DNA from: a virus
IMG/VR virus record: IMGVR_UViG_3300026484_000250
Coordinates: 1 to 42,654 of that record
Direction: 5' to 3' (one strand)
DNA length: 42,654 nucleotides
The notes beneath the pieces were generated by a model. That model made no database searches. It was given only the letters and a program-made list of their open reading frames with translations, and had not been told where the DNA came from. Shown one piece after another: positions 55 through 39,992 of this stretch (within the stretch, counting starts at the first letter, position 1; each line of letters opens with the position of its first letter). A program made the position numbers and the translations under genes.

Positions 55-411
55 GGGGTCGACTTGGTATCGACTTGTGAATGAGTAAATTTTAGAACAA
101 GTAGATTGATTGACTTAAACAATCAACATAAAACTTAACTGCAAACAATACAAATTACAGCGTGGTAGTTGCTGCATAGCACCCACTATGGTCTCTTAGA
201 ACCATATTATCAAATCTAAGAAAAAAGTATTGTGGGAGCAATTCGTCGATAGAAATATCCAAAAGTTTTTCTTAACTCTTTAAAGGTTAAGATGTTTCTA
301 TATTAAAAAATATAGTTGTTAGAATTCAATAAAAATTCAACATAAAAACTTGTACAATTCTAAAATTGAAAATTTATAAAGACTGGGGTTCGACTCCCCA
401 CGACTCCACCA
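55..411 (+). ncRNA. ssrA: tmRNA (transfer-messenger RNA)
   Basis: A one-piece, non-permuted tmRNA of 357 nt including an encoded CCA, close to the usual bacterial length. The acceptor stem pairs GGGGTCG (55-61) with CGACTCC (401-407), followed by A408 and CCA. The T arm is TGGGG/CCCCA (384-388, 396-400) around a TTCGACT loop. A long helix forms between about 88-102 (AATTTTAGA then ACAAGT) and 348-367 (ACTTGT then TCTAAAATT), as expected for the P2 stem. The tag frame starts at the resume codon GCA 141 and ends at TAG 177-179. It acts with SmpB (encoded at 22829) to free ribosomes stalled on broken mRNA and to tag the product for proteolysis. Known in a few phages, uncommon overall. Confidence 0.95.
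141..179 (+). CDS. tmRNA tag-peptide reading frame
   Basis: Reading from GCA 141 gives the 12-residue tag ANNTNYSVVVAA followed by TAG. The ANN start resembles Campylobacter tags as I recall them (ANNVKFAPAYAKAA). The C-terminal part VVVAA differs from the AKAA end but keeps a small hydrophobic terminus suitable for ClpXP-type recognition. Only frame, resume codon and stop are seen; degradation of tagged products is inferred from known tmRNA biology. Confidence 0.85.
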   Translation, partial: ANNTNYSVVVAA

Positions 412-4679: not shown

Positions 4680-6397
4680 TGTATATAGAATTTAAAAAAA
4701 TCTCCTTTAAAAATATTGGAGGTTATGGAGAAGATGAACAAACTATTCATTTTGAAAAAGGGCTTAGTTTAATTATCGGAAAAAATGGTCAAGGAAAATC
4801 AACTATAATTCAAGCATTAAATTATGTGCTTTATGGAAAACCATTCGCAAAGATAAAATTAGCATCTTTAAAAAATAAGTATAGTGATGGAGCGATGTTA
4901 GTAACTTTAGAATTAGAAGTTAATGGGGATCTTTATATTATTGAAAGAGGTTTAAAACCTACTAAATTTAATATTTATAAAAATAAAGAATTAATTCCAT
5001 TTACTACAGTTAAAGATTATCAAGCTATGTTAGAGAATGATATTTTAAGAATGTCAGAAAATATTTTTAAACAATTAGTAGCTTTAGGTGCAAATGTTGA
5101 AAATGCGAAACATTTTATGGAATTAAATCAAAAAGAGAAAGAAGAAATCCTTCAAATTCTTACAGATACAAGAATTTTTAGTATGCTGATTGAAGAAATA
5201 AGACTATTAAAATCTGATATTAAAGGGAAATTAACAACTAAATTGATTGAAGTTAATACTAAAAAAGAAAGCTTAGTAAAGACAAAAAGACTTCTTGAGG
5301 ATTTAACAGTACAAAATGAAAATGTTAAAGAAAATAGAGACCAGAGAATAAGTGAATTATTAGAAAAATTGGAAGACCTTAATAATATTGTTGAAGCATT
5401 TAAGACATATTCAGAAAAATTTCAGACTTTAAAAGAAAGGTTCGAACCATATTTTAGCGATTATAATAAAATTGTGAATGAATATAATGTAAATGTTCAA
5501 AAGAAAAATCATCTCTTAGGTGAACTTTCTTCTTTTAATAATTCAGATGAAGTTACTTGTCCTGAGTGTGGTGCAAATTTTAAAGAAATCCAGCTAAAGA
5601 AAACAGTTGAAGTTGAAAAAATAAAAAAAGATCTCGAAGACATAGAAAAAGTTATTCAAAATCATTCGGTTGAAATGCAAAGATTGAAAGAAATTATTGA
5701 AAAATATAAGAGTAAAGAAATTGATTTTAATTCAGAATTAGCAAAGTCAAGACAAGCTGAAAATAATATTATTTTTATAAAAAATGAAATTAATACCCTT
5801 GAAAATCAGCACGAGATCTCAACGATAGAGACTGAAAAACAAATAGATGAACTTTCGGTTGACATTGAAAAAGAAAGTGCTCTAGTTGCCTTATACGAGC
5901 GAGATATGAATGATTATGCTATGCTTGAAAATATTCTTTCTATTAAGAATATTACTGGGAAAATCATAAGTACCCAAATACCACTTTTGAATACTTTTAT
6001 AAATGAGTATTTAGAAAAATTTGAAGTTGATTATCAGTTCTTTCTTTCTAAAGATTTAAAAGAGTCTATAACAAGAAGAGATGAGGAATTTGAATATTAT
6101 TCATTAAGTAATGGAGAAAAACAAAGAATTGTTTTGTCAATATTGTTTAGTTTTTTAAAGCTTATAGAAATGTCTGTAAAGATTAATATTTTATTCCTTG
6201 ATGAATTTTTAGATAGTAGTCTAGATGAAGAGGGGACATCGTTGGTACTTGAAATTTTAAAAGAAGATTTCAAGGAAAAGAATGTGTTTATTATATCACA
6301 TAAACAAGAAGTAAAATCAATAGATGATGTTGCAAAATCAGTTTATAAGGTTAGTAAAGATGATAGAAACAAATATAGTAAAATTGAAAAGGTATAG
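4679..6397 (+). CDS. 46: recombination nuclease ATPase subunit gp46 (SbcC/Rad50-like)
   Basis: 572 residues, a compact Rad50 ABC-type ATPase. Walker A GKNGQGKS at 34-41, coiled coil either side of a zinc hook CPEC (C294, C297), signature SNGEKQR near 476 and Walker B ILFLDEFLD near 502, followed by a D-loop SSLDEEG. The size and zinc hook match T4 gp46. Forms the end-resection complex with gp47. Confidence 0.95.
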   Translation: MYIEFKKISFKNIGGYGEDEQTIHFEKGLSLIIGKNGQGKSTIIQALNYVLYGKPFAKIKLASLKNKYSDGAMLVTLELEVNGDLYIIERGLKPTKFNIYKNKELIPFTTVKDYQAMLENDILRMSENIFKQLVALGANVENAKHFMELNQKEKEEILQILTDTRIFSMLIEEIRLLKSDIKGKLTTKLIEVNTKKESLVKTKRLLEDLTVQNENVKENRDQRISELLEKLEDLNNIVEAFKTYSEKFQTLKERFEPYFSDYNKIVNEYNVNVQKKNHLLGELSSFNNSDEVTCPECGANFKEIQLKKTVEVEKIKKDLEDIEKVIQNHSVEMQRLKEIIEKYKSKEIDFNSELAKSRQAENNIIFIKNEINTLENQHEISTIETEKQIDELSVDIEKESALVALYERDMNDYAMLENILSIKNITGKIISTQIPLLNTFINEYLEKFEVDYQFFLSKDLKESITRRDEEFEYYSLSNGEKQRIVLSILFSFLKLIEMSVKINILFLDEFLDSSLDEEGTSLVLEILKEDFKEKNVFIISHKQEVKSIDDVAKSVYKVSKDDRNKYSKIEKV

Positions 6398-6400
6398 AAG

Positions 6401-6646
6401 ATGTTATTAGGTGATATGGCAAAAGATATTATAGAGTTCAGTAAAGTAAATGGTCTTGATGAATTTACAATGTTAGAAAGAATTCTAATTTATTGCGAAG
6501 AGAAAGGGTTTGATATAATGGAAGTTGGAGATCAGCTCAAATCTGATAAATTTTTTAAATCTATTTTAGCAGATGATTTAAAGGCAAATCATTATATCAA
6601 GAAAGAAAAAGATGCAGTTAAGACTGCTGATTTAAGCGATTGGTAA
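6401..6646 (+). CDS. possible late-transcription coactivator (gp33-like)
   Basis: 81 residues. The central part (LERILIYCEEKGFDIMEVGD) followed by a short helix and ADDLKANHYIKKEK resembles the small T4 gp33-type coactivators, which bridge RNA polymerase and the sliding clamp at late promoters. The pattern 'helix with YCE then LK..A..NHYI' is from memory of cyanophage homologues, not a database match. It follows gp46 after 3 nt. It could also be an unrelated small helical protein. Confidence 0.5.
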   Translation: MLLGDMAKDIIEFSKVNGLDEFTMLERILIYCEEKGFDIMEVGDQLKSDKFFKSILADDLKANHYIKKEKDAVKTADLSDW

Positions 6647-6670
6647 GGAAACTTATAGTATAATTAGCAA
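6643..6670 (+). promoter_or_regulatory. promoter, phage consensus family (variant)
   Basis: AACTTATAG then TATAAT at 6659-6664, just after the 6401 gene and 16 nt before the ATG of the 6680 gene. Confidence 0.55.
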
Positions 6671-6679
6671 AGGAAAAAT

Positions 6680-7228
6680 ATGCTAACTAAACAAGATCAA
6701 TATTCAATAGCGATGGGAATTATTCAAACATATAAGAATGATTTACCATCTCCAATAAAAGCTAAAGGTATGTCGAAGCAATTTGATATGATGTTTAATT
6801 ATGAGAGATTTTCTTCATATACAAGAAGTAGATTTATGCTCGTATGTATTTTCTTAGTTTATAAGAATGATATAACTAATATAAGTGAATTTATAACAAT
6901 CTCAAGAAATTTCTCAGAACTTCAAAAAGAATATGAAACATTCATAGAGGATATTAAATTCTATAAAATGAAAATGGAAAAAGATATAAATTATCTTTAT
7001 AAAAGAGGAAACCTTAATGATTTTTTCATTGAAGCTTTAAATGATTATCAAAATGGTAATATTCATTTCTTTTCTTTATATTTTGTTGTTCTTTTAGGTA
7101 AACATCAACATATAATGGAACAACGAATTTATAGAAGACATTGGAAACAAATGAAATTCTTAATGAAATTCTTTAGTTTTGATATAGAATTTATTAAGCT
7201 ACTTATTAATCCAAAGTTAGGAAACTGA
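6680..7228 (+). CDS. hypothetical protein, 182 aa
   Basis: Largely helical and rich in aromatic residues, with two hydrophobic stretches (FMLVCIFLVYKND near 54 and IHFFSLYFVVLLG near 127) that are more likely buried helices than membrane spans. Basic C-terminal half. It sits among replication genes, where T4 has helicase-loader and clamp genes, but I see no match to either. Confidence 0.75.
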   Translation: MLTKQDQYSIAMGIIQTYKNDLPSPIKAKGMSKQFDMMFNYERFSSYTRSRFMLVCIFLVYKNDITNISEFITISRNFSELQKEYETFIEDIKFYKMKMEKDINYLYKRGNLNDFFIEALNDYQNGNIHFFSLYFVVLLGKHQHIMEQRIYRRHWKQMKFLMKFFSFDIEFIKLLINPKLGN

Positions 7229-7229
7229 A

Positions 7230-7412
7230 ATGAAGTCAATACAAGAGTTGAAAGAGAGTTTTGATATTGATGGTTATAAAGCAATTTTAAAACTTATGGA
7301 TAGGGATAATGGCGATATTCATTTTTGCTTAACTAAACAAAATGAAGAAGAAGCAAAAAAGTCGTATGAATTTCATACAATGATAAAACTTAAAAAATAT
7401 ATTAAGATTTAA
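7230..7412 (+). CDS. hypothetical protein, 60 aa
   Basis: Begins MKSIQELKESFDIDGYKAIL, starts 2 nt after the preceding stop within reach of the AGGAAACTGAA site. No motif seen. Co-transcribed with the 6680 gene. Confidence 0.6.
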   Translation: MKSIQELKESFDIDGYKAILKLMDRDNGDIHFCLTKQNEEEAKKSYEFHTMIKLKKYIKI

Positions 7413-7414
7413 TC

Positions 7415-7450
7415 AAATATTAAGTTAAAATAGGGTATAATATACTTATA
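7415..7450 (+). promoter_or_regulatory. promoter, phage consensus family
   Basis: ATTAAGTT, then AATAGGG, then TATAAT at 7436-7441. Drives the 7469 gene and probably the clamp-loader genes if the hairpin at 8323 is read through. Confidence 0.75.
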
Positions 7451-7468
7451 AAAAATAAAGGATAAAAG

Positions 7469-8329
7469 ATGGAACAACCAAACTTAGAACAAATTATTCA
7501 ACAATTAATTGATGAAGAAATGGGGAGAAATAAAGGTTTTGAGGATAAGATGAAAAATAATTTCAATATGAACCAAATGGGTGTAGAAGCAATTAAAGCA
7601 AAATTTAAAAGGGAAATTTCAAATCTTGAAGATGGTGAAGAATATTCGATAACTTTTAATTTAAAGGGTGTAACTGATAATGTAAAAGCTAAAGAAGTTC
7701 TTTTTGATATCTATTCAGGATTTTTAACTCTTGGTGATGATTTAGCGAATGATGGTTCGATTGCAAGAGTTTTAGTTGAAGTTGAATCTAAGACTGATAA
7801 AGAAGAAATGGATACTGAGTCTAAAGAAGAAATGGGTACTGAGTCTAAAGAAGAGAAAATTGACCATTATGAAGATAAAATCTCACAATTAGTTAAAGCC
7901 AATGCTGAAAAAATTGAGGGTCTTCAAGAAGACCTTGATTATGAAGAAGTTGAAGAACAATTTACATTACCTAAAAGATTGCAACATATGTCAAAACCAT
8001 ATAATGCTGAACTAGAGAACTTATTAGAAACTGTTCAAAAAGCGAGAAGCGATATTAGTCAAGGGGCAAATCCTTATAAAATTCTTAAAAATGTTTTAAT
8101 TACAGAAGATATTCATACATATCATACTATTATTGAAACAGGTGAGACAGTAGCTTTATTCGCACTTCCACATCTAAGTGCTCTTTTCAATGAACAAGAT
8201 ATTGAAGATGGAACTGCTTGTATGGGTTTTATTTTATGTACAAGTTCTAAAGATTTAGAGATTGTTAGAATTGATCCAGAAGATTTCCATATTATTGCTC
8301 AAATGCCAATTATAGAAAAATTGAAGTAG
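7469..8329 (+). CDS. hypothetical acidic protein, 286 aa
   Basis: Three parts: an N-terminal helical/strand domain (1-110), an acidic linker with a repeated ESKEEM-type unit (about 111-140), and a C-terminal domain (about 185-286, IDPEDFHIIAQMP near the end). It lies directly before gp44, where T4 carries the sliding clamp, but the sequence does not look like a clamp to me. The linker repeat (two near-copies of MDTESKEE) suggests a flexible tether. Confidence 0.75.
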   Translation: MEQPNLEQIIQQLIDEEMGRNKGFEDKMKNNFNMNQMGVEAIKAKFKREISNLEDGEEYSITFNLKGVTDNVKAKEVLFDIYSGFLTLGDDLANDGSIARVLVEVESKTDKEEMDTESKEEMGTESKEEKIDHYEDKISQLVKANAEKIEGLQEDLDYEEVEEQFTLPKRLQHMSKPYNAELENLLETVQKARSDISQGANPYKILKNVLITEDIHTYHTIIETGETVALFALPHLSALFNEQDIEDGTACMGFILCTSSKDLEIVRIDPEDFHIIAQMPIIEKLK

Positions 8330-8343
8330 GAATTTCCTACTTC
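8323..8343 (+). terminator. hairpin between the 7469 gene and gp44 (terminator or attenuator)
   Basis: GAAGTAGG (8323-8330) pairs perfectly with CCTACTTC (8336-8343) around 5 nt; the TAG is the stop codon of the 7469 gene. The T run afterwards is weak (TTAAACC), so it may only reduce read-through or set RNA stability before gp44. Confidence 0.5.
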
Positions 8344-8362
8344 TTAAACCAAAAGGAAGACT

Positions 8363-9304
8363 ATGAAGAAAATAGATACAAGTGAATATTTGTGGATTGA
8401 AAGATATAGACCACAAACAGTTGATGATATTATTATGCCTGAAACAACAAAAGCAATCTTTAGAAAATGGGTAGAAGAAGATGAAATCCCAAATCTTGGG
8501 TTTTTTGGTTCTCCTGGTTTAGGAAAGGGTTCTACATATAATGCTCTTATGAAAGATATGAATAATCATTATGTTGAAATAAATGGTTCTAAAGATAATG
8601 GTATTGATATGCTTAGAACTACTATTACAAAATTTGCATCAAGTAAGAGTATGGAAAATACAGTTAAAATTATTGTTCTTGATGAAAGTGATCATTTATC
8701 TCCAGCAGCACAAGCTGGTTTAAGAAATGATATTGAAGCTTTTAGTAAAAATGCGAGATTTATCTTAACTGGAAATTATAAAGATAAAATAATTCCAGCA
8801 GTTATTAATAGACTTCAAGTTTATGATTTAGATAGAATTTTTGCTGAAAATAAAGCTGAATTAGGAAAGCAAATCTTAGAAAGATTAAAATTTATTCTTG
8901 AAAATGAAAAAATTGAATATGAAATGGCTGATATTGCTGAAGTAGTAAAACAATTTTACCCATCAACAAGGGCAATGATTGGTTTTTTACAACAACATTC
9001 AAATAGTGGGAAATTTGTTTTAGGTAAAGCTGAAACATTAACATATAAAGGTATAATTGAAAAAATTAAACTTAAAGATTTTAAGGGTACTAGAGAAGCA
9101 GTTAAAGAAATAACACTTCCTGATACATTTTATACCTGGATGTGGAAAAATATTGACAATATTGTTGAAATGCAAAGTCAACCAGAAATCATACCTAAAA
9201 TGGCTGAATATCAGGATATGAGTACAAGAGCAATTAATAAGGAAATACCATTAATGGCATTTTTAGTTACTTTGATGCAAAGTAACACAATACAATGGAA
9301 ATAA
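8363..9304 (+). CDS. 44: clamp loader ATPase large subunit gp44
   Basis: 313 residues, AAA+ protein with the RFC-type N-terminus LWIERYRPQTVDDII. It loads the DNA polymerase sliding clamp as a complex with the gp62-like protein. Walker B is VLDESDH near 112, sensor 1 LTGNYKDKIIPAVINR near 153-168, then a helical collar domain. Odd: Walker A reads GSPGLGKGST, so the residue after the catalytic Lys is Gly instead of the usual Thr/Ser, with Ser-Thr following one place later. The RFC-type SRC box is NRL here. Confidence 0.9.
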   Translation: MKKIDTSEYLWIERYRPQTVDDIIMPETTKAIFRKWVEEDEIPNLGFFGSPGLGKGSTYNALMKDMNNHYVEINGSKDNGIDMLRTTITKFASSKSMENTVKIIVLDESDHLSPAAQAGLRNDIEAFSKNARFILTGNYKDKIIPAVINRLQVYDLDRIFAENKAELGKQILERLKFILENEKIEYEMADIAEVVKQFYPSTRAMIGFLQQHSNSGKFVLGKAETLTYKGIIEKIKLKDFKGTREAVKEITLPDTFYTWMWKNIDNIVEMQSQPEIIPKMAEYQDMSTRAINKEIPLMAFLVTLMQSNTIQWK

Positions 9305-9313
9305 AGGAATAAA

Positions 9314-9580
9314 ATGTTTTATGTAACACCATTTTCAAATATTGAGTTAAGAAAAGATACGAAAATAAGTTTTATTTTAGAAAAATTAGTAGTTTCAGTT
9401 GTAAATGGAAATGAAAAAATAACATTTTTATTTGACTGTAAAGAAAATCTTATATTATTTGTAGATGAAATAAACTTTTGTCTTGAATCTCTTTATTCTA
9501 AAAATATTACTGAAGTGGAAGTTACTGATACTGATAAAATCATAGAAGATTTTATCAGCCATTTTGGAGGAGAAAAATGA
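9314..9580 (+). CDS. hypothetical protein, 88 aa
   Basis: Lies between the two clamp-loader genes; its last codon overlaps the ATG of the gp62-like gene. Mostly beta-strand-like N-terminus followed by an acidic tail (EVEVTDTDKIIEDF). No family recognised. The location suggests a replication-linked role, but nothing in the sequence proves it. Confidence 0.7.
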   Translation: MFYVTPFSNIELRKDTKISFILEKLVVSVVNGNEKITFLFDCKENLILFVDEINFCLESLYSKNITEVEVTDTDKIIEDFISHFGGEK

Positions 9581-10023
9581 GTTTTTTAGAAGAATTTGGT
9601 ATTACACCAATAATTGAAAATGAAGAAGAAATTAAAAAAGAAAAATTTAATATGTTTGAAGTTATGACAACTTGTATGAATAAGAAACGAGTTCCCTCTG
9701 ATGAAGAACTATCAAAACTTAGTCCCTTTTTATTCCATAACCTATTATCAGGAGATGTAAATACCCTTATGATGGGATTATTTTTAGACAGATATTCAGC
9801 TATTATTCCTGTTGAAAATCAGTGGAAATTTGTAAATGCTTTAGTTCCAAAATATTATGTTCCTTATCCAAAAGGTTTAAAGGAAGATAAAGAAAGTATT
9901 GAGTTTTTACAAGAAATTTATTGCATTAATAAAAATACTGCAAAAGAATATTTAAAAATGCTACCGAAAGCTGAATTAAAAAAGCTTAAAGAAAAACATA
10001 AAATTACAGAGGGAAAAAGATGA
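9577..10023 (+). CDS. 62: clamp loader small subunit, gp62-like
   Basis: 148 residues, somewhat shorter than T4 gp62 (about 187). Helical throughout. The segment WKFVNALVPKYYVPYPKG followed by an Asn-rich turn (YCINKNTAKEYLKML) matches the pattern I recall in T4 gp62 (a YLMAAVPRG.RYGKW segment followed by a NTNDAINYKSIL segment). Closeness to gp44 supports this. Overlaps the 9314 gene by 4 nt and the DHH gene by 4 nt. Confidence 0.65.
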   Translation: MSFLEEFGITPIIENEEEIKKEKFNMFEVMTTCMNKKRVPSDEELSKLSPFLFHNLLSGDVNTLMMGLFLDRYSAIIPVENQWKFVNALVPKYYVPYPKGLKEDKESIEFLQEIYCINKNTAKEYLKMLPKAELKKLKEKHKITEGKR

Positions 10024-10976
10024 AAATAAAACAAATTAGTCATACAGATTTAGATGGGATTGGTGCTTGTATTCCAGTTAAAATATTCGCATATAAAAAA
10101 CAAATAGATTATTCATATATTAATATTAGTTATGATGAAATCACAAATTCAATAGGTAGCTTTGAATTTGGAGATATAAACTATATCACTGACTTAAATT
10201 TTCAAGAAAATGATATTAAATTATTTTTAAAAGTTGTGAAAGAAAATCCTACAAAGAAATTCTTCTATTTTGATCACCACCAATATACAGATATGGAATT
10301 AGCTCTTTTTTCTGCTGCTCAAGAAAAATTCGTAAATTTTAATTATATTATTGATACAACTATTTGTGCTGCTCAGATAACATATAATTATTTTGAAAAG
10401 GTTTGTGGTGATGTAAATTTAAAGAGTTTAATAAATTTAATTAATATTTATGATACTTGGAAAACTGACAATCCTCTATTTAATGAAGCATTTCTTCTTG
10501 ATAAAGTTTTTTGGTATGTTATAAGTAATGGGGGCTTCCACGAATTTATTTTTAGATTAGAAAGAAATAATTGGCTTCTTCCTGAAGACTTTAAACTAGC
10601 TCAACAAAGAATGATACAAAACAAGTTGAATGATTATAAGATGTTTGAAGAAAATGGTATGATTATAAGAGGGGAACATATTTTTGTAATACCTACTGTT
10701 GAATGGATTAATGATACAAGGTTTGATTATCCAGATTTTAAAGCATATTTTGGTTTTAATCCTAAGAAAAATAAGATCTCAATTAGAGTAGATGATGATT
10801 ATCCTGAAGTAAAACAATTTGTAATTGACCTATTATCTACAAGAAATGATGATCAACTTATTTCTTGTGGTGGACATAACTTTGCATTTGGTATAACTCT
10901 AAAAAGTAATGAACTTCTTCTTGATTATGTACAATTTGTTTCTACTAGGGTTGAAGACTTTTTAAGCAAGAATTAA
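10020..10976 (+). CDS. DHH family phosphoesterase
   Basis: 318 residues. Motifs: HTDLDGIG (8-15), ITDLNF near 57, FDHHQ near 85 (the DHH signature) and a DHHA1-type SCGGHNFAFGI near 281. Family members (NrnA, RecJ, archaeal oligoribonucleases) are metal-dependent exonucleases or break down short oligonucleotides or cyclic dinucleotides. In this operon it may recycle nanoRNA or act in recombination. A role against cyclic-nucleotide defence signalling is possible but unproven. Confidence 0.85.
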   Translation: MKIKQISHTDLDGIGACIPVKIFAYKKQIDYSYINISYDEITNSIGSFEFGDINYITDLNFQENDIKLFLKVVKENPTKKFFYFDHHQYTDMELALFSAAQEKFVNFNYIIDTTICAAQITYNYFEKVCGDVNLKSLINLINIYDTWKTDNPLFNEAFLLDKVFWYVISNGGFHEFIFRLERNNWLLPEDFKLAQQRMIQNKLNDYKMFEENGMIIRGEHIFVIPTVEWINDTRFDYPDFKAYFGFNPKKNKISIRVDDDYPEVKQFVIDLLSTRNDDQLISCGGHNFAFGITLKSNELLLDYVQFVSTRVEDFLSKN

Positions 10977-16440: not shown

Positions 16441-16474
16441 TTTTAAAAACTAAAATAACTTGAAAGGCTTAAAA

Positions 16475-17368
16475 ATGAACTTTGAAAAAACAGATCCAGA
16501 ACTCATCCGAGTAAACAATGTTCTTTGGGATTTATTAAAAATCCATCAATCACAAGAACTTGAACATCCAATATATAACATCCAAGATATTAAAAAAATT
16601 AGGGTAGAAGATTTTAAAACAGAAGAAGCGAAAGATATTTTTTCTGATTTAACTTATGGAACTTCAAAAAGTAAAATAAAACAAGCATTATTACAAACTC
16701 AAAAAGATCTAAGTGCTCAAATTTTTACATCAGTATTTGAGTCTGCTCCTATTGAAATCAAAGAGATTTTTAAAGCCCTAAATGAAATAGACGGAAACTT
16801 CTTTTTAGTAGGAGGAAGCGTTAGAGATGCTCTTCTAGGGAATAATATTAAAGACTTTGACCTTACAACCTCATTAGATTATAATCATCTTAAAACCATA
16901 TTAGAGGGGCAATTTGACCTTGATATAAGAGGTGAACACTTTAAAGTTCTTATAGTTAAAAATGGGAAAGAAGAAGTTGAAATTGCTCAGTTTAGAAAAG
17001 ATGGCACATACTCTGATGGTAGAAGACCTGATAGTGTTTCTGCTGGTACGATCTTTGATGATGCTGCTCGTAGAGATTTTACAATTAATGCAGGATATTG
17101 GGATATAAAAGACTTTAAACTTCTTGACCCTACTGGTGAATTTATTGATGCTATACAAAAAAGAGAATTGAAATTCATAGGAAATGCGGAAGATAGACTT
17201 CAAGAAGACCATCTAAGAGGGTTGAGATTTTATAGATTTTTAGCGACTAAAGGTTTAAAAGCTGATAAAAGATCTTTAAAAGCAGTTAGAAAAAATATGG
17301 GAATTATTCTTTCTTCTATAGATCCTCAACGAGCCACAAATGAAATAGAAAAAATAGTAGGAGTTTAA
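16475..17368 (+). CDS. tRNA nucleotidyltransferase / poly(A) polymerase family (CCA-adding type)
   Basis: 297 residues from ATG 16475 (RBS GAAAGG at 16462). Class II nucleotidyltransferase head and neck: LVGGSVRDALLG at 111-122, catalytic Asp127 and Asp129 in DFDLTT, SDGRRPD near 180-186, ARRDFTINA near 198-206, then EDHLRGLRF near 244-252. Adds or restores the 3' CCA of tRNAs, or adds A tails. The 95-residue N-terminal extension is unusual and the C-terminal body/tail domains are largely missing, so it is short. The phage tRNA and tmRNA already encode CCA, so repair of trimmed ends is a more likely role than maturation. Confidence 0.9.
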   Translation: MNFEKTDPELIRVNNVLWDLLKIHQSQELEHPIYNIQDIKKIRVEDFKTEEAKDIFSDLTYGTSKSKIKQALLQTQKDLSAQIFTSVFESAPIEIKEIFKALNEIDGNFFLVGGSVRDALLGNNIKDFDLTTSLDYNHLKTILEGQFDLDIRGEHFKVLIVKNGKEEVEIAQFRKDGTYSDGRRPDSVSAGTIFDDAARRDFTINAGYWDIKDFKLLDPTGEFIDAIQKRELKFIGNAEDRLQEDHLRGLRFYRFLATKGLKADKRSLKAVRKNMGIILSSIDPQRATNEIEKIVGV

Positions 17369-20110: not shown

Positions 20111-21706
<1,596 letters not shown>

Positions 21707-24076: not shown

Positions 24077-25312
24077 ATGTCAACGATATTAAATGAAGCT
24101 TTAGCTGAAAAACAAAAAGTAACAGATGAACAAAGAAAAAATTTATATAAATTATATGATGAATTAAATTGTTTATTTGCGGAAGAAGAAGAATTACTCC
24201 CTCAAGAGGTACGAGAAAGAGGGGAAAATCTTGCAAGAAAACTAACAGAAATTGAAAATAATTTACAACGAAACTGGAACTTTGATATTAATCCTAAATT
24301 TCACACCTATGAATTTAACTTTAAAAATTGTATTTGTCCTCGCTTAGATAATTCTGAAAGATTTGGATTTGAAAAAATCTATAACTGTGGTTGCCCTATT
24401 CACTCATTTAAGTGCTTCAAAAATAAAGAAGTACAAGATGAAAATAAACCTCTTGGAATTCGTATGAAAGATTATGAAGCTGATTATGAAACTAGAATTC
24501 CTGAAGATGAACATATTATTATTAGAATTGATGGACACAAATTTTCAAAGTTTACTAAAGGGATGTTAAAGCCTTTTGACCATATTTTACTTGAGTCTAT
24601 GAATAAAACAACAATAGATTTAGTAGAACATTTTCAAGCATATACTGGGTTTACACAGTCAGATGAAATAACACTTTATATCCCATCGTTAAAGTTATTA
24701 GAAGAACAACCAAAATATGGCTGGAAACATATGCATTCAGGAAGAGTGCAAAAAATAGCTAGTTTAGTGTCTGCATACACGACTAGACAATTTAACAAAC
24801 ATTTTAGAGAAGCAGTTAAAAACCTTGAAATAACAATTCTTGATACTGAAGTTTCTGAAGAAGAAAGAAATAATATGTGGGATTATTTCTTAAAAATGAA
24901 TAATAAAGTTGGAAATGCTTGGTTTGATGCGAGAGTTTATGGAGTACCTACAAATGAAGAAGTTTTGAATTCATTTTTATGGAGAAGTAGAGATTGTGTG
25001 AAAAATAGTAAATCTATGTTTGCTCAAACATATTGTTCACATAGAGAACTTATGAATAAGACTGCTGAAGAACAAATCCAGTATTGTAAAGATAAAACTG
25101 GAAATGATTGGAATGAAATTCTTGATAGATACAAATATGGGTACTTAGTTAAAAGAAAAGAATATAGAAAGGTTGTTGAGTTGCCTGAAAAAATTAAGCC
25201 ACATATGGATGTAAAGACAGTTCTTAGAACACAAATCTTGGGATGGTCTGAAGAATTAAGTTTTGATGAAGTAACTCTTAAGAAAATTATTGGTAAATAT
25301 CTAAAGGATTAA
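24077..25312 (+). CDS. Thg1-like 3'-5' polymerase (tRNA-His guanylyltransferase family)
   Basis: 411 residues. Enzymes of this family add nucleotides to the 5' end of tRNAs in the 3'-5' direction; Thg1 adds G-1 to tRNA-His, while bacterial and phage-type relatives repair 5'-truncated tRNAs. Landmarks: RIDGHKFSKFTKGMLKPFD (150-168) with metal ligand D152, NKTTIDLVEHFQAYTGFTQSDEITL (176-200) with D196-E197, and a further HSGRVQKIASLVSAY region. The N-terminal about 125 residues are not part of the usual family start and carry five Cys (C85, C87, C104, C106, C113), a likely zinc module. Next gene is a Nudix hydrolase. Confidence 0.9.
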   Translation: MSTILNEALAEKQKVTDEQRKNLYKLYDELNCLFAEEEELLPQEVRERGENLARKLTEIENNLQRNWNFDINPKFHTYEFNFKNCICPRLDNSERFGFEKIYNCGCPIHSFKCFKNKEVQDENKPLGIRMKDYEADYETRIPEDEHIIIRIDGHKFSKFTKGMLKPFDHILLESMNKTTIDLVEHFQAYTGFTQSDEITLYIPSLKLLEEQPKYGWKHMHSGRVQKIASLVSAYTTRQFNKHFREAVKNLEITILDTEVSEEERNNMWDYFLKMNNKVGNAWFDARVYGVPTNEEVLNSFLWRSRDCVKNSKSMFAQTYCSHRELMNKTAEEQIQYCKDKTGNDWNEILDRYKYGYLVKRKEYRKVVELPEKIKPHMDVKTVLRTQILGWSEELSFDEVTLKKIIGKYLKD

Positions 25313-29860: not shown

Positions 29861-30949
29861 ATGAAAAGATTTATTAATATGGGATCAATTTCTCAATTTC
29901 GTAATGTTGTAAAAGATTTAGGACATCAAGCTAGATTTCAAGGCTTAGATGAAGATGGAAATCCAATTTATCGAGAAGTGAGTTTACCAACTTTAGAAGC
30001 TATTGGAACAGAGAAAGTACACGGGACAAATGCAGCAGTTTGTTACAGCAATCCAGATGGTTTTTGGGTACAATCAAGAAAAAATATAATTACACCAGAA
30101 AAAGATAATGCTGGTTGTGCATTTTCAGCAATGGCTGTTGAAAAAGAATGGATGGAAATTATTTCTAGTTTAGTAAATGAACATAATATTGATTTAGATA
30201 AAGAAATTATTACAGTTTACTTTGAGTGGTGTGGTGGAAATATTCAAAAGAATGCCTGTGTTTCTGGTTTAGACAAAAGAGCTATTATTTTTAGACATTT
30301 TAAAGTTTCTCCAATTGACCAACAAACAGAAGATAATAATGTCGCTGCAAGATGGTTAGAAACTAATGGTATTTGTAATGAAGAAAAAAATATTTTTAAT
30401 GTGATGAACTTCCCAACTGTTAAAGTAGAAATTGATTTTAATAATCCAGGCGAAGCTCAAAATAAGATGATAAAATTGGTTGAAGAAATGGAAGATAATT
30501 CTCCTATGGGAAAATCTTTTGGAATAGAGGGAAATATTTTAGAGGGATTTGTTTTTACTGTAGTGTTTGATGGTCAAAGATATGTATGGAAAGTAAAAGG
30601 CGAAAAACATTCTAAAGGTTCTGGGAAAGTTAAAACCCTTAAACCAATAGATACAGAAGCTGAGAAGAAAAAAGCTGATTTTGTTAATAACATAGCTTGT
30701 CAAGAATTTAGATTAGACCAAATGTTCACTGAAATCCAAAATAGTAAATATAATGGTGATGTGATGCAAATGTCAAATAAAGATATTGGTGATTATATTA
30801 GATTAGTTTTAAAAGATGTAATTAAAGAACATACTGAAGATTTAGTTGAAGCTGGATTAGAACCAAAATCTATAAATGGAATGATTAGTAAAGTTGCTAA
30901 AATCTATTTTATGGATAGACTTGATAAAGAGCAAATGGAAAATGGATAA
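29861..30949 (+). CDS. RNA ligase, Rnl2-type
   Basis: 362 residues. Nucleotidyltransferase-superfamily ligase: motif I EKVHGTN with adenylated Lys52, motif Ia QSRKNIITP (71-79), motif III VYFEWCGGN near 119-127, motif IV LEGFVF near 228 and motif V WKVKGEKHS (243-251, K244/K246). Seals nicks in RNA; T4 Rnl2 and Rnl1 relatives reverse tRNA cleavage by host anticodon nucleases. Additional C-terminal helical part (about 265-362). Together with the Thg1-like, CCA-adding and RlaP enzymes it suggests tRNA repair. Next gene starts 8 nt before its stop. Confidence 0.9.
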   Translation: MKRFINMGSISQFRNVVKDLGHQARFQGLDEDGNPIYREVSLPTLEAIGTEKVHGTNAAVCYSNPDGFWVQSRKNIITPEKDNAGCAFSAMAVEKEWMEIISSLVNEHNIDLDKEIITVYFEWCGGNIQKNACVSGLDKRAIIFRHFKVSPIDQQTEDNNVAARWLETNGICNEEKNIFNVMNFPTVKVEIDFNNPGEAQNKMIKLVEEMEDNSPMGKSFGIEGNILEGFVFTVVFDGQRYVWKVKGEKHSKGSGKVKTLKPIDTEAEKKKADFVNNIACQEFRLDQMFTEIQNSKYNGDVMQMSNKDIGDYIRLVLKDVIKEHTEDLVEAGLEPKSINGMISKVAKIYFMDRLDKEQMENG

Positions 30950-35898: not shown

Positions 35899-36963
35899 AT
35901 GAATAATAAAGATTTATTAAAATATGGTATAGATATTGCTAAAATTGAAAAAGAACACGACATTGAAGTTGTTTATTTAACATTATCAGGTTCAAAACTT
36001 TATGGTACAAATACTCCAACTTCTGATACAGATATTAAGGGTATATTTATCCCAAGTAAAAGATCTTTAATTTTAAAGAAAGATCCTGGGAGTATTACTT
36101 TAGATACAAATAAAACAAATATTAAAAATACTAGCAAAGATGTGGATTGTACAATTCATAATATTTATAATTTTTTCAATCAACTTAAAAAATCAGAAAC
36201 TGGTGCTGTTGATATTCTTTTTAGTATGTGGTCAAATGATACTATTGTATATGCTAATGAAAAATTTTTAAAAGTTATGAAAGAGAATTATAAAATATTT
36301 TTAAATAGAAATATGAAAAGTTTTATCGGTTATGCTTTAGGTCAAACTAAGAAATTTGGAATTAAAGGAAGAAGATATGATGAGCTTGATGATTTTATTA
36401 AGAAATTCTATGTATGGTCTGATAAATATCTTGAACAAAAATTAGATGATGGTAGAGGAAGTTGGGAAAATCTTAAAGGTTGGGTTAATGCTGGAAATTA
36501 TAAATATATAGAATTTTTAATGGCTCCAGGTCCAAAAACAAGTGGTGCTCAAAAAGATATTGAATATATCGCAGTTTTAGGTAAGATGTTCCCAAGAACA
36601 GTTAAAATTGGTTATATGTATGAAAGAATTTCTAAGTTATACGAACAATTTGGAAATAGAACAAAAACTATTGCAGCAACTGTTTCAAAAACTGATTTTA
36701 AAGCATTGTCACATAGTTTAAGAATAGCTTTGGAAGTTAAAGAACTTCTTGAAACTGGTTTTATAAAATTTCCATTAAAAGATGCTAAAAAACTTAGAGA
36801 AATAAAAGAAGGAAAATATGATTTTGAAGAAATCGTAAATGAAGTAGAAAAAACATTAACTTTAGTTGATGAAATGCTTTTAACTTCTGAATTTCCTAAA
36901 AATGCTGATAGTAAAAAAATTGAGAAGTTATATCTTGATTTTGTTGATCCAATTTTAATATAA
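35899..36963 (+). CDS. RlaP-type nucleotidyltransferase (Pol-beta superfamily)
   Basis: 354 residues. N-terminal nucleotidyltransferase site: LSGSKLYGTNTP with GS at 31-32 and TSDTDIKGIF with paired Asp43/Asp45, a pattern I associate with the 'RNA repair pathway Pol-beta' (RlaP) family, which is often near RNA ligases. The C-terminal part is helical with basic patches (RYDELDDFIKKFYVWSDKYL). Probably adds or transfers nucleotides on RNA ends. About 5 kb from the RNA ligase in the same direction. Confidence 0.8.
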   Translation: MNNKDLLKYGIDIAKIEKEHDIEVVYLTLSGSKLYGTNTPTSDTDIKGIFIPSKRSLILKKDPGSITLDTNKTNIKNTSKDVDCTIHNIYNFFNQLKKSETGAVDILFSMWSNDTIVYANEKFLKVMKENYKIFLNRNMKSFIGYALGQTKKFGIKGRRYDELDDFIKKFYVWSDKYLEQKLDDGRGSWENLKGWVNAGNYKYIEFLMAPGPKTSGAQKDIEYIAVLGKMFPRTVKIGYMYERISKLYEQFGNRTKTIAATVSKTDFKALSHSLRIALEVKELLETGFIKFPLKDAKKLREIKEGKYDFEEIVNEVEKTLTLVDEMLLTSEFPKNADSKKIEKLYLDFVDPILI

Positions 36964-36972
36964 GGAAAAATT

Positions 36973-37854
36973 ATGTTATTAGATGAAAGATTAGTACCAA
37001 CTGAATTATTAGTTGGTACGAGTGGAGATTTATGTTTCTTTACATATAAAGAAAATGGTAAAATAAATTCAGAACATTCGTGGTCAGGGTGGTCTAGTAA
37101 CTCTGACAACCCTATTGTCCTTAAGAATGAATTTAAACGAGGTTATAAAATTTCGGGTTTAAATCATAGATGGTCGAGTAGGTCAAGAAATAAAGATATT
37201 CTTTTAGTAAAACATCCAGATATTGAACAGTCATTCGAACTTTCTATGTCACAATTTTTAAAAATCTTAGAAGAATGTAATATTGTAGATAAAGAGTTTA
37301 CTATTGAATTAATAATTGATAAAAATAGATCTCTTATTACTAAGAAGATGTATGAAAAAGCTTTAAAAAATATAAACGAGAAAGAAGAAAAAGAAAATGA
37401 AAAACTAAATTTATTTGAAGCTAGAAAAATAAAACCTAAAGAACAAGTTCCAGGGAAAATTTATGTTGAGAAAAATGGTTATAGAGTTCTATTTTTAGGA
37501 TCTTGTGATATGCTTTCTAGTACAGATGGTACATTTGGTAAAAAGAGATTTTGTTATATTGACATATGGTCTAATGATAAGTTGCAACCGAAGAAAGATA
37601 ATTTACCATCATTTATCTATGAATGTGGGAATGGTTATAGAGTAAAGAATATTCGTTCAACAGTTAATAAATTAAAATTAGCAGAATGTGATGATACAAC
37701 AGAGTCATATTATAAATACTATACTGATGATGATTTTGAAAAAATTAAAATTGCATTTCAAAAATTTGATGGGTTATATGGTGGTAATATATTAAATGGT
37801 TCTAAAGAAAGACCAATACCAAGATTTAAGGAAGATTATGAAAAATTCTTATAG
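36973..37854 (+). CDS. hypothetical protein, 293 aa
   Basis: Basic-acidic mixed, with two regions of beta pattern (LVGTSGDLCFFTYKENGK near 13-30 and NGYRVLFLGSCDM near 166-178) joined by a charged helical linker (about 120-150). Starts 9 nt after the RlaP stop. No family recognised; context suggests a partner of RlaP, without proof. Confidence 0.7.
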   Translation: MLLDERLVPTELLVGTSGDLCFFTYKENGKINSEHSWSGWSSNSDNPIVLKNEFKRGYKISGLNHRWSSRSRNKDILLVKHPDIEQSFELSMSQFLKILEECNIVDKEFTIELIIDKNRSLITKKMYEKALKNINEKEEKENEKLNLFEARKIKPKEQVPGKIYVEKNGYRVLFLGSCDMLSSTDGTFGKKRFCYIDIWSNDKLQPKKDNLPSFIYECGNGYRVKNIRSTVNKLKLAECDDTTESYYKYYTDDDFEKIKIAFQKFDGLYGGNILNGSKERPIPRFKEDYEKFL

Positions 37855-38065
37855 TGAATGGTTCTCATCGTATATTTGTAATGAATGCAATAATGAATGT
37901 GGTTTAAGTACTCTTACTTGCCCAGAGTGTGGGTGTGATATTATACCTAGAAAAAATATAAGATATGTTTATGTACCACAATTTCAATTATTTGGGGTTA
38001 CTATTATTAGAAAAATAGTAGGGATAGAAACTCGGGATTATAAAGGAAATGTTTATTTATTATAA
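37838..38065 (+). CDS. small zinc-ribbon protein, 75 aa
   Basis: Start set at ATG 37838 after TAAGGAAGATT, overlapping the upstream gene by 17 nt. Zinc ribbon: CNECNNEC and CPECGCD (about 14-36). A following strand-rich part (IRYVYVPQFQLFGVTIIR). Unknown target. Confidence 0.65.
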   Translation: MKNSYSEWFSSYICNECNNECGLSTLTCPECGCDIIPRKNIRYVYVPQFQLFGVTIIRKIVGIETRDYKGNVYLL

Positions 38066-38075
38066 AGGGAGAAGT

Positions 38076-38441
38076 ATGAAAATTTTAATAATTGATGATA
38101 GTAAAACTATGAGGAGAATTGTTACAAATGTCGTTAAACAATTACTCCCAAGTGCTGAAATTACTGAAGCAGAAGATGGAGCCGAAGCTATTAAATTTTT
38201 AGCTAAAGAAAAATTTGATGTTATGCTATGTGATATTAATATGCCGAATAAAAATGGTTATGAAGTTTTAGAATTTTGTAATTCAATGAATATTAAAGAT
38301 ATGTTTAAAGCTATGATTACAACAGAGGGTGGGAAACCAGAGGTGATAAAGGCTTTAAAATTAGGAGCAAACCAATATATTATAAAACCATTTAATGCGG
38401 AAACTTTAAAAGAAAAACTTGAAACTATAATAAAAGATTAA
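38076..38441 (+). CDS. CheY-like single-domain response regulator
   Basis: 121 residues from ATG 38076 (RBS AAGGGAG). Complete receiver domain: acidic pair D7-D8, phospho-acceptor Asp53 in VMLCDINMPNKNGYE, TT at 82-83 in MITTEGGK, and Lys104 in YIIKPF. All residues needed for phosphorylation are present. In Campylobacter CheY controls flagellar rotation. Phage-encoded copies are rare. It could bind the host flagellar motor or kinase to change swimming, or be a captured host gene with a new role. No output domain, as in CheY. Confidence 0.92.
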   Translation: MKILIIDDSKTMRRIVTNVVKQLLPSAEITEAEDGAEAIKFLAKEKFDVMLCDINMPNKNGYEVLEFCNSMNIKDMFKAMITTEGGKPEVIKALKLGANQYIIKPFNAETLKEKLETIIKD

Positions 38442-38534: not shown

Positions 38535-39992
38535 ATGGTTAGTATTAAACAATTATCAGAGGCAGTTAGAAATGGCGAGTCAATCGTTGAAGCTAAATTT
38601 GATAAGAAAAAATTAAGAAGAGTTAGTGATTTATTAGCTTCAATCATCGGTAAGGGTGAGGGTGGAACTTATAATCTATTAGGTGCTGGTCTTGGAGAAG
38701 ATAAGTTTAAGAAAAAAGATGGTAACTCTGGATATGGGTTTAAATATATTACAAGTTCTGGAAATTTAATTAGATTTGGTTTTTATGATAAATCTAAAAA
38801 CAAATATGGAATTAATGTAGTTGACTTTTGGGATAAATCTAAAGGTGCTGGTCTTTTTACTGCTCCAACTACAACAATTGAATTATACGATTGGATGAAT
38901 ATTGTTGATGTTGTTGAAGAATTAAAAGATATCATTATTAGAGGAAAAATGGAGAATTTTTCTGAAGCTGTGATTAATGAGTGGGATGTTCCTAAAAAGA
39001 TGAAAGCATATGCCTTGACTAAAGGTATTGAATGGAATGGTGAAACTGGATCTAGATTTGAAAAAATCCTTAAAGATGCTGGTGTTTGGGATGAAGACGA
39101 ATATAAAGGTTTTAAAGTTAAAAAAGGTGTTGATGAAGAAAATAATGCAACAGTTACAGTAACAAAAGCTGAAAAAATACTTGATAAGAAAAAATATTCT
39201 GATCCAGATGTAGTTTTTGATGATATTGAAAAACTTGCAAAAGTTGTAGCTATGGGGTTACAAAATTCTCTTATTGTTTGTGGTGCTGCAGGAGTTGGGA
39301 AAACTTTCCACGTGGAAAAGTCAATGAAAACATTATTAGGAAGTCCAAATGGACCTGATGCTCAATGGAGATATAGACAAGGTGCTAAACTAAGCCCAAT
39401 GGGATTATATTTTGACTTATTTATGAATAGAGATAATATGACGATTGTCTATGATGATTCTGACTCAGTATTTTCTGATAAAGATGGTATTAATATGCTT
39501 AAATCAGCTCTTGATACTAAAAAAGAAAGAGTTTTATTTTGGAATTCACCTAAAACTCAAAATATTGAAATTTTAAGTCCTGAAGAACAAGAAGAATATT
39601 ATGCAAAATTATACGATGCGATGTTAAATAAACCTGAAGATGTTGGTACAAAAATCAAACTTCCAAATACATTTAATTTTACATCAAGAGTTATTTTTAT
39701 ATCAAATCTTCCAGGAGAAAAATTCCAAAAAGATGCAGATTTAGCAGCAATCGCATCAAGATCTTTATTTATGGATATTCAATTAACACTTGAAGATAGA
39801 GTTAGAAGAATTAAATCAATTATTGAATTCATAAGCCCTGAAATTGCTTTAGAAGAAAAACAAAAAGTTGTAGATCAATTATCTGCATCAGGAAAAGAAT
39901 TGACAATGAGAGCAGTTGTTGCTGCTATTGCAATTAAAGAGTCTGGTGAGAGTGATTGGGAAAGATTAACAAGAGAATATACGGCAGTTTAG
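38535..39992 (+). CDS. AAA+ ATPase, phage type (MoxR-like)
   Basis: 485 residues. Walker A GAAGVGKT at 250-257, Walker B MTIVYDDSDSVF near 299, sensor 1 VIFISNLPGE near 392, and a likely arginine finger near 408 (IASRSLFMDI). N-terminal 210 residues form a separate domain (about 37-120 with GFKYITSSGNLIRFGFY). Common among T4-like phage genomes but of unknown precise role; may remodel a DNA- or capsid-linked complex. Followed by a hairpin-rich gene-free stretch. Confidence 0.85.
   Translation: MVSIKQLSEAVRNGESIVEAKFDKKKLRRVSDLLASIIGKGEGGTYNLLGAGLGEDKFKKKDGNSGYGFKYITSSGNLIRFGFYDKSKNKYGINVVDFWDKSKGAGLFTAPTTTIELYDWMNIVDVVEELKDIIIRGKMENFSEAVINEWDVPKKMKAYALTKGIEWNGETGSRFEKILKDAGVWDEDEYKGFKVKKGVDEENNATVTVTKAEKILDKKKYSDPDVVFDDIEKLAKVVAMGLQNSLIVCGAAGVGKTFHVEKSMKTLLGSPNGPDAQWRYRQGAKLSPMGLYFDLFMNRDNMTIVYDDSDSVFSDKDGINMLKSALDTKKERVLFWNSPKTQNIEILSPEEQEEYYAKLYDAMLNKPEDVGTKIKLPNTFNFTSRVIFISNLPGEKFQKDADLAAIASRSLFMDIQLTLEDRVRRIKSIIEFISPEIALEEKQKVVDQLSASGKELTMRAVVAAIAIKESGESDWERLTREYTAV

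What the first reader, a model, noticed from the sequence alone, without database searches (positions are those of the whole stretch)
38076..38441. Phage-encoded CheY-like response regulator
All receiver residues (D7-D8, D53, T82/T83, K104) are intact, so it could be phosphorylated by the host CheA and compete for the flagellar motor. Campylobacterota are flagellated and many of their phages need flagella or capsule, so altered swimming or adsorption is plausible.
Basis: partly seen in the sequence, partly recalled or inferred. Interest (0 to 1): 0.65.

Follow-up and report, generated by a model that had tools for sequence, protein, structure and literature searches.

The report
Phage-borne chemotaxis switch protein (CheY)
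This virus of bacteria carries its own copy of CheY, the small protein that tells a bacterial flagellum which way to turn, and a dozen other viruses of several types carry relatives of it, which suggests that these viruses interfere with how their hosts swim.

Summary
Window 38076-38441 (+) encodes a 121-aa stand-alone receiver (Pfam Response_reg, 90 bits) with all catalytic residues. It is a chemotaxis-type CheY, closest to Helicobacter pylori CheY (48% identity; top Foldseek match). The record is viral. Twelve further uncultured viral contigs encode relatives (41-53% identity). They span gp23/PhoH-type T4-like phages, RNA-polymerase-encoding phages, and a 172-kb/290-kb pair. They form one clade with H. 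pylori CheY (96/91), apart from gammaproteobacterial CheYs and ordinary receivers. The alpha4-beta5-alpha5 face, which binds CheA, FliM and CheZ, is 69% identical to H. pylori against 38% elsewhere (p=0.0016). Sister phage genes are under purifying selection (dN/dS 0.10-0.29). No CheA, CheW, CheZ or FliM/FliN is found in the records searched, so phosphate and target must come from the host. Competition for host CheA is therefore better supported than motor switching. The host phylum is inferred. No comparable gene turned up in 50,697 phage records apart from probable contaminants.

The parts
38076..38441 (+). cheY-like gene: 121-aa stand-alone receiver protein (P0001)
   Evidence: translation; Pfam Response_reg 90 bits; nearest PDB sequence H. 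pylori CheY; AlphaFold2 pLDDT 94.1, pTM 0.88; Foldseek top match H. pylori CheY 3h1f, TM 0.93
38067..38071 (+). GGGAG ribosome-binding site, 4 nt before the ATG at 38076
   Evidence: read from the sequence
38094..38099 (+). codons D7-D8: acidic pair (E. coli CheY D12-D13), Mg2+ site
   Evidence: alignment
38232..38234 (+). codon D53: predicted phosphorylation site (E. coli D57)
   Evidence: alignment
38235..38237 (+). codon I54: position of E. coli Trp58, a FliM-binding hallmark of Campylobacterota CheYs, replaced here
   Evidence: hallmark list from PMC9321776
38319..38321 (+). codon T82: switch threonine (E. coli T87)
38376..38378 (+). codon Y101: switch tyrosine (E. coli Y106)
38385..38387 (+). 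codon K104: active-site lysine (E. coli K109)
38313..38423 (+). alpha4-beta5-alpha5 output face (residues about 80-116): 69% identical to H. pylori CheY against 38% for the rest
37796..38065 (+). upstream ORF, 89 aa, four CxxC-type cysteines, ends 10 bp before cheY; context only
   Evidence: no Pfam or PHROG match
38535..39992 (+). downstream phage AAA-type ATPase-like ORF (phrog_1250); marker used to find relatives L085 and L086, in which no CheY was found; context only

Best explanation
The gene encodes a phage copy of a Campylobacterota-type chemotaxis CheY. During infection it is made as a free cytoplasmic receiver, takes phosphate from the host CheA kinase (no kinase of its own is found), and uses its conserved alpha4-beta5-alpha5 face to compete with host CheY for CheA and for the FliM motor switch. 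The result would be to uncouple the flagellar motor from the chemoreceptors, so that infected cells stop steering normally. Shown here: the gene, the predicted fold, the catalytic residues, the chemotaxis-type kinship, the preferential conservation of the binding face, recurrence in unrelated phages, purifying selection in sister genes, and absence of other chemotaxis genes in the records searched. Inferred: the host, phosphorylation by CheA, which partner is the main target, and the direction of the swimming effect. Within this explanation I put competition for CheA (expected whenever CheA phosphorylates it) ahead of active motor switching for this particular protein, because Trp58 is Ile.
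For: Receiver family and intact active site. Nearest solved sequence is H. pylori CheY at 48% identity; Foldseek top match is H. pylori CheY 3h1f (E 9.3e-12, TM 0.93). Window plus 12 phage CheYs plus H. pylori CheY form one clade, 96/91. Identity to H. pylori is 27/39 in the output face against 29/77 elsewhere, Fisher p 0.0016; the ratio 1.84 is the highest of the rows compared, while cellular CheYs and receivers outside this clade give 0.75-1.38. N59, T87, E89, K92, Y106, K109 and K119 are conserved. Exactly one receiver above cut-off in each of 11 CheY-bearing viral records, with no CheW domain (therefore no CheA), no FliM/FliN C-terminal domain and no CheZ. dN/dS 0.10-0.29 in close pairs of sister phage genes. 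Campylobacterota F3 CheYs control the flagellar motor (PMC9321776).
Against: Trp58 is Ile54; PMC9321776 reports Trp58, Lys91 and Lys119 as exclusive to the motor-binding CheYs of Campylobacterota. Ile at this site is not fatal in itself: Thermotoga CheY has it, and its crystal structure with the FliM N-terminal region is in the PDB (4iga). The window branch is long (1.11 changes per column), so function may have drifted. The contig is a fragment, so partner genes elsewhere in this phage cannot be excluded. H. pylori is the only Campylobacterota CheY in the tree, so face conservation may belong to the whole phylum rather than to the phages. No expression or interaction data.
Confidence: 0.52

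Rival explanations
1. Pure phosphate sink. The protein is phosphorylated by host CheA but does not switch the motor; it drains phosphate from host CheY and biases cells to smooth, counterclockwise swimming. In H. pylori, counterclockwise-biased mutants start biofilms more readily.
For: Catalytic residues intact but the Trp58 hallmark is lost (PMC9321776). Loss of CheA, CheW or CheV1 in H. pylori gives counterclockwise bias and more biofilm initiation (PMC11237671). The long branch fits loss of one of several contacts.
Against: K92, Y106, T87 and K119, also tied to the motor-bound state, are all kept. Nine of the 12 sister phage CheYs keep Trp58, so a sink-only role would not hold for the family.
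Confidence: 0.25
2. The receiver works outside chemotaxis: it signals to a phage or host regulator unrelated to the motor, or has become an unphosphorylated scaffold.
For: Stand-alone receivers can be re-used. One sister phage record (L103, G012) also encodes a membrane sensor histidine kinase and a weak receiver-like ORF. Long branch.
Against: Groups with motor CheY and not with other receivers. The conserved part is the face used by chemotaxis partners. The active site is intact.
Confidence: 0.15
3. Passenger: a recently captured host gene, or host DNA assembled into the contig, with no function for the phage.
For: The two nearest relatives found by the neighbouring gene lack it, so it is dispensable.
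Against: It lies, with its own ribosome-binding site, in a run of phage genes. Relatives sit inside 130-290-kb viral contigs of several kinds. Sister genes show dN/dS 0.10-0.29. It is only 48% identical to H. pylori CheY, so it is not a recent capture from a close relative of that species.
Confidence: 0.05

Closest known systems
Helicobacter pylori CheY (PDB 3gwg, 3h1f; a prototype of F3-CheY in PMC9321776)
   Same: Single receiver domain, 48% identity, same fold (TM 0.93), same active site, very similar alpha4-beta5-alpha5 face.
   Different: Encoded by a phage outside any che locus; Trp58 position is Ile; one extra residue in the alpha1-beta2 region; only 38% identity outside the output face.
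CheY of 12 uncultured phages found here (L097-L106, L136, L137)
   Same: Same clade, stand-alone; one receiver per record in those checked.
   Different: Nine keep Trp58. L106 is the sister (93/86) and shares Ile58 and the DINMPNKNGY motif. Some lie next to DNA end protector and PhoH genes, unlike the window.
Alteromonas phage V22 gp30 and A5 gp11 (CheY-like auxiliary genes; PMC7289586, PMC10579305)
   Same: Phage-encoded receiver domain proteins, proposed as auxiliary genes.
   Different: 147-149 aa, in a tail-fibre module; V22 protein 24% identical by structure comparison and not among the tblastn rows shown for the window protein. The window gene lies among replication and nucleotide-metabolism genes.
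Vibrio cholerae CheY4 and Sinorhizobium CheY2 (PDB 4hnr/4h60, 1p6q)
   Same: CheY paralogues; V. cholerae CheY4 is reported not to bind FliM (PMC3774744), a possible functional parallel.
   Different: Cellular genes and much weaker matches (59 and 57 bits against 96 for H. pylori CheY).

Membership tests
Receiver (Response_reg, PF00072) | match to the family above its curated cut-off, with Asp pair, phospho-Asp, Thr/Ser and Lys | tested here: met
   90 bits against cut-off 30.2; D7 D8 D53 T82 K104
Chemotaxis CheY | single receiver domain without an output domain | tested here: met
   121 aa, the receiver fills residues 3-115
Chemotaxis CheY | groups with CheY rather than with other receivers | tested here: met
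   tree; PDB ranking; best NCBIfam model is chemotaxis response regulator CheY (90.9 bits, but below its 189-bit equivalog cut-off)
Chemotaxis CheY | encoded with or near other che or fli genes | tested here: not met
   no CheW domain, FliM/FliN, CheZ or histidine kinase ATPase match in the 42.65-kb record; the record is a fragment
Campylobacterota motor CheY (F3 type) | clade with H. pylori CheY | tested here: met
   96/91; only one Campylobacterota reference was available
Campylobacterota motor CheY (F3 type) | Trp58, Lys91, Lys119 and the Tyr106-Thr couple (PMC9321776) | tested here: not met
   Trp58 is Ile54; the GGK lysine aligned with E. coli K92 is kept, as in H. pylori; Lys119, Tyr106 and Thr87 equivalents kept
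Campylobacterota motor CheY (F3 type) | phosphorylated by CheA and binds FliM | not testable with these tools
   biochemistry needed
Phage auxiliary (host-takeover) gene | host-type gene in a phage genome, kept under selection | tested here: met
   viral record; 12 further viral records; dN/dS 0.10-0.29 in sister genes
Phage auxiliary (host-takeover) gene | shown benefit to infection | not testable with these tools
   needs an isolated phage and host

The most novel reading that the evidence does not exclude
Unrelated lineages of large phages of flagellated Campylobacterota have repeatedly acquired or exchanged a motor-type CheY, with which they take over the direction of their host's swimming during infection: a viral control of bacterial behaviour that acts at the signalling step rather than by shutting motility genes down.
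Probability: 0.35. Interest if true: 0.8.

Novelty: new variant of a known kind. Interest (0 to 1): 0.6.

Why it matters
Phages that lower motility gene expression, and CheY-like genes in a few Alteromonas phages, are on record. A group of motor-type CheYs in several unrelated large phages, with the partner-binding face preserved, has no counterpart in the 50,697 phage records or the papers searched. If it works as proposed, it would be a direct way for a virus to steer or blind its host's swimming. The idea can be tested quickly, because CheY assays (phosphotransfer, FliM-peptide binding, tethered-cell bias) are standard.

Tried and rejected
(1) Host DNA contamination: rejected, since the gene lies in a run of phage genes with its own ribosome-binding site, and homologues sit inside long viral contigs. 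(2) Non-chemotaxis receiver: rejected by tree and PDB ranking. (3) 'Phage' hits in the public phage collection at 30-40% identity: mostly unannotated short records whose hits look like bacterial DNA (for example Listeria phage LM and Acinetobacter MD-2021a records carrying OmpR, CheA, BaeR); not counted as phage CheYs. (4) A phage-encoded CheA: HATPase_c hits in G015 and G001 are GyrB-type topoisomerase; the G012 hit is a membrane sensor kinase with no CheW domain in the record. (6) Sample origins of the IMG/VR contigs: no paper found by identifier. (7) Papers on phage CheY with auxiliary metabolic genes: only the Alteromonas phages were relevant. (8) Promoter search: only T4-late-type TATAAATA was checked; the nearest upstream plus-strand site is at 37711, not informative.

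Full report
What is there. The window is a 42,654-base virus record, G+C 26.9%. Its genes include ribonucleotide reductase small subunit, SbcCD-like nuclease, clamp loader, DnaB-type helicase, family B DNA polymerase, RNA ligase, a tRNA-His-guanylyltransferase-like protein and GroEL. At 38076-38441 (+) it encodes a 121-aa protein matching Pfam Response_reg with 90 bits. An upstream ATG at 38049 would add nine residues, but 38076 has the better ribosome-binding site and agrees with homologues.

It is a chemotaxis CheY by sequence, fold and descent. Among PDB sequences the best match is H. pylori CheY (96 bits), then V. cholerae, E. coli and Salmonella CheYs; receivers of other kinds start at 52 bits. 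Identity to H. pylori CheY is 48%. AlphaFold2 gives a confident receiver fold (pLDDT 94.1), and Foldseek's top match is H. pylori CheY 3h1f (TM 0.93). In a tree of 55 receivers, the window protein, 12 other phage CheYs and H. pylori CheY form one clade (96/91). Gammaproteobacterial CheYs, alphaproteobacterial CheYs and Bacteroidota receivers fall elsewhere.

The gene recurs in phages. A search with the window, H. pylori, E. coli and V. cholerae CheYs, then with the phage set, found 12 viral contigs (L097-L106, L136, L137). Their G+C is 26-32%. In a search of 12 records, the 11 that bear a cheY (the window included) each hold exactly one receiver above cut-off. Several kinds of phage are involved. 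L097, L098, L101, L104 and L136 share a T4-like neighbourhood, with a DNA end protector (assigned by PHROG in L104) and PhoH (assigned in L104); L101 also holds a gp23 major capsid gene. L100, L102 and L103 lie near an RNA polymerase beta-type subunit. L099 and L106 are related 172-kb and 290-kb records. The two nearest relatives of the window by its neighbouring ATPase-like gene (L085, in a 155-kb contig, and L086) have no detectable CheY, so the gene is accessory. L099 and L106 are nearly identical downstream of cheY but only 60-78% identical in its first 300 bases and unrelated just upstream, where L106 has a GIY-YIG-like ORF. That fits exchange of cheY alleles by recombination.

Anatomy. 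All phosphorylation residues are kept (D7, D8, D53, T82, K104), as are the equivalents of E. coli N59, E89, K92, Y106 and K119. The alpha4-beta5-alpha5 face, which in CheY binds the CheA P2 domain, FliM and CheZ (established knowledge; a paper on the overlap of these surfaces is in the reference list of PMC3774744), is 69% identical to H. pylori (27/39) against 38% (29/77) for the rest (Fisher p 0.0016). The ratio, 1.84, is the highest in the set. All phage CheYs of the clade have ratios of 1.32-1.84, while cellular proteins outside the clade give 0.75-1.38. This suggests that contacts with Campylobacterota-type partners are kept while the rest drifts. The reservation is that no second Campylobacterota CheY was available for comparison. 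Close pairs of sister phage genes have dN/dS 0.10-0.29.

The weak point for motor switching. PMC9321776 names Trp58, Lys91, Lys119 and the Tyr106-Thr couple as marks of the motor-binding CheYs of Campylobacterota. Trp58 is Ile54 in the window protein (also Ile in L106 and L137, His in L136, Trp in the other nine). Thermotoga CheY also has Ile there, and its structure with the FliM N-terminal region exists (4iga), so the change does not forbid motor binding, but it lowers my confidence in it.

Stand-alone. No CheW domain (hence no CheA), no FliM/FliN domain and no CheZ were found in the records searched. HATPase_c hits in G015 and G001 are GyrB-type topoisomerases. Record G012 (that of L103) encodes a membrane sensor kinase about 100 kb from its cheY, unlike CheA. 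The window's CheY must therefore be phosphorylated by a host kinase, most likely CheA, or by small phosphodonors.

Host. H. pylori CheY is the nearest cellular sequence in the tree. The best polymerase matches among named phages are Campylobacter phages, but at only 27%. The phage tmRNA tag ANNTNYSVVVAA resembles Campylobacterota tags as I remember them; that is a lead, not a test. No host genome of that phylum could be reached, and CRISPR spacers were not searched.

Mechanism. The best-supported reading is a phage CheY that enters the host's CheA-CheY-FliM pathway and uncouples swimming from sensing. It may act as a competitor or phosphate sink, as an active motor ligand, or both. For this particular protein the sink component is the safer part. 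A consequence that fits known biology: in H. pylori, mutants lacking CheA, CheW or CheV1 have counterclockwise bias and more biofilm initiation (PMC11237671). Some Campylobacter phages need rotating flagella (F341; PMC9266447), but nothing here ties cheY to adsorption. A protein made after infection could at most act on superinfecting phages or on dispersal of progeny.

Novelty. CheY-like genes have been named in Alteromonas phages V22 and A5, next to tail-fibre genes (PMC7289586, PMC10579305); the V22 protein is only 24% identical in the structure comparison. I found no isolated phage with a CheY of the present kind among 50,697 records, setting aside records that look like bacterial contamination. 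I rate it a new variant of a known kind: phage-carried signalling genes are known, while a motor-type CheY group shared by several phage types is, as far as I could search, undescribed.

Noticed in passing
window 55-411 and 414-490: The phage encodes a tmRNA (Rfam 90.6 bits) with tag peptide ANNTNYSVVVAA directly followed by tRNA-Cys. None of the other 13 records searched has a tmRNA above cut-off.
   Followed up: partly
window 20120-21706: Full-length phage GroEL (phrog_5725, 552 bits; Cpn60_TCP1), found in 286 of 50,697 phage records.
   Followed up: partly
window 24077-25312, 35899-36963, 29861-30949, 16460-17368: A set of RNA-repair-like genes: Thg1-type tRNA-His guanylyltransferase, RlaP-like nucleotidyltransferase, RNA ligase and a tRNA nucleotidyltransferase / poly-A-polymerase head protein; perhaps counter-defence against tRNA cleavage.
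   Followed up: no
L099 4700-5900 and L106 4000-5900: Two otherwise closely related phage records carry diverged cheY alleles: sequence identity rises from about 0.6 to 1.0 along the gene, and L106 has a GIY-YIG-like ORF just upstream. This suggests homing or recombination exchange of cheY.
   Followed up: partly
L150 (G012 147100-167008), about 6433-10206: The CheY-bearing phage of L103 also encodes a membrane sensor histidine kinase beside a weak receiver-like ORF and a DUF3373 protein, a possible phage two-component pair; a host segment in the contig is not excluded.
   Followed up: partly
L136 4240-5001 and neighbours 6212-7783: Proteins next to cheY begin with or contain N-terminal peptides (MIKFSDFINE, MKSFREIIKKE) that recall the capsid-targeting peptides of T4 internal head proteins; perhaps packaged proteins (from memory, untested).
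   Followed up: no
L108 and L109 (contigs of 78 and 137 kb, G+C 0.56): A second, unrelated group of viral CheY-like proteins (154 aa, identical in two samples) with a cysteine-containing C-terminal tail.
   Followed up: no
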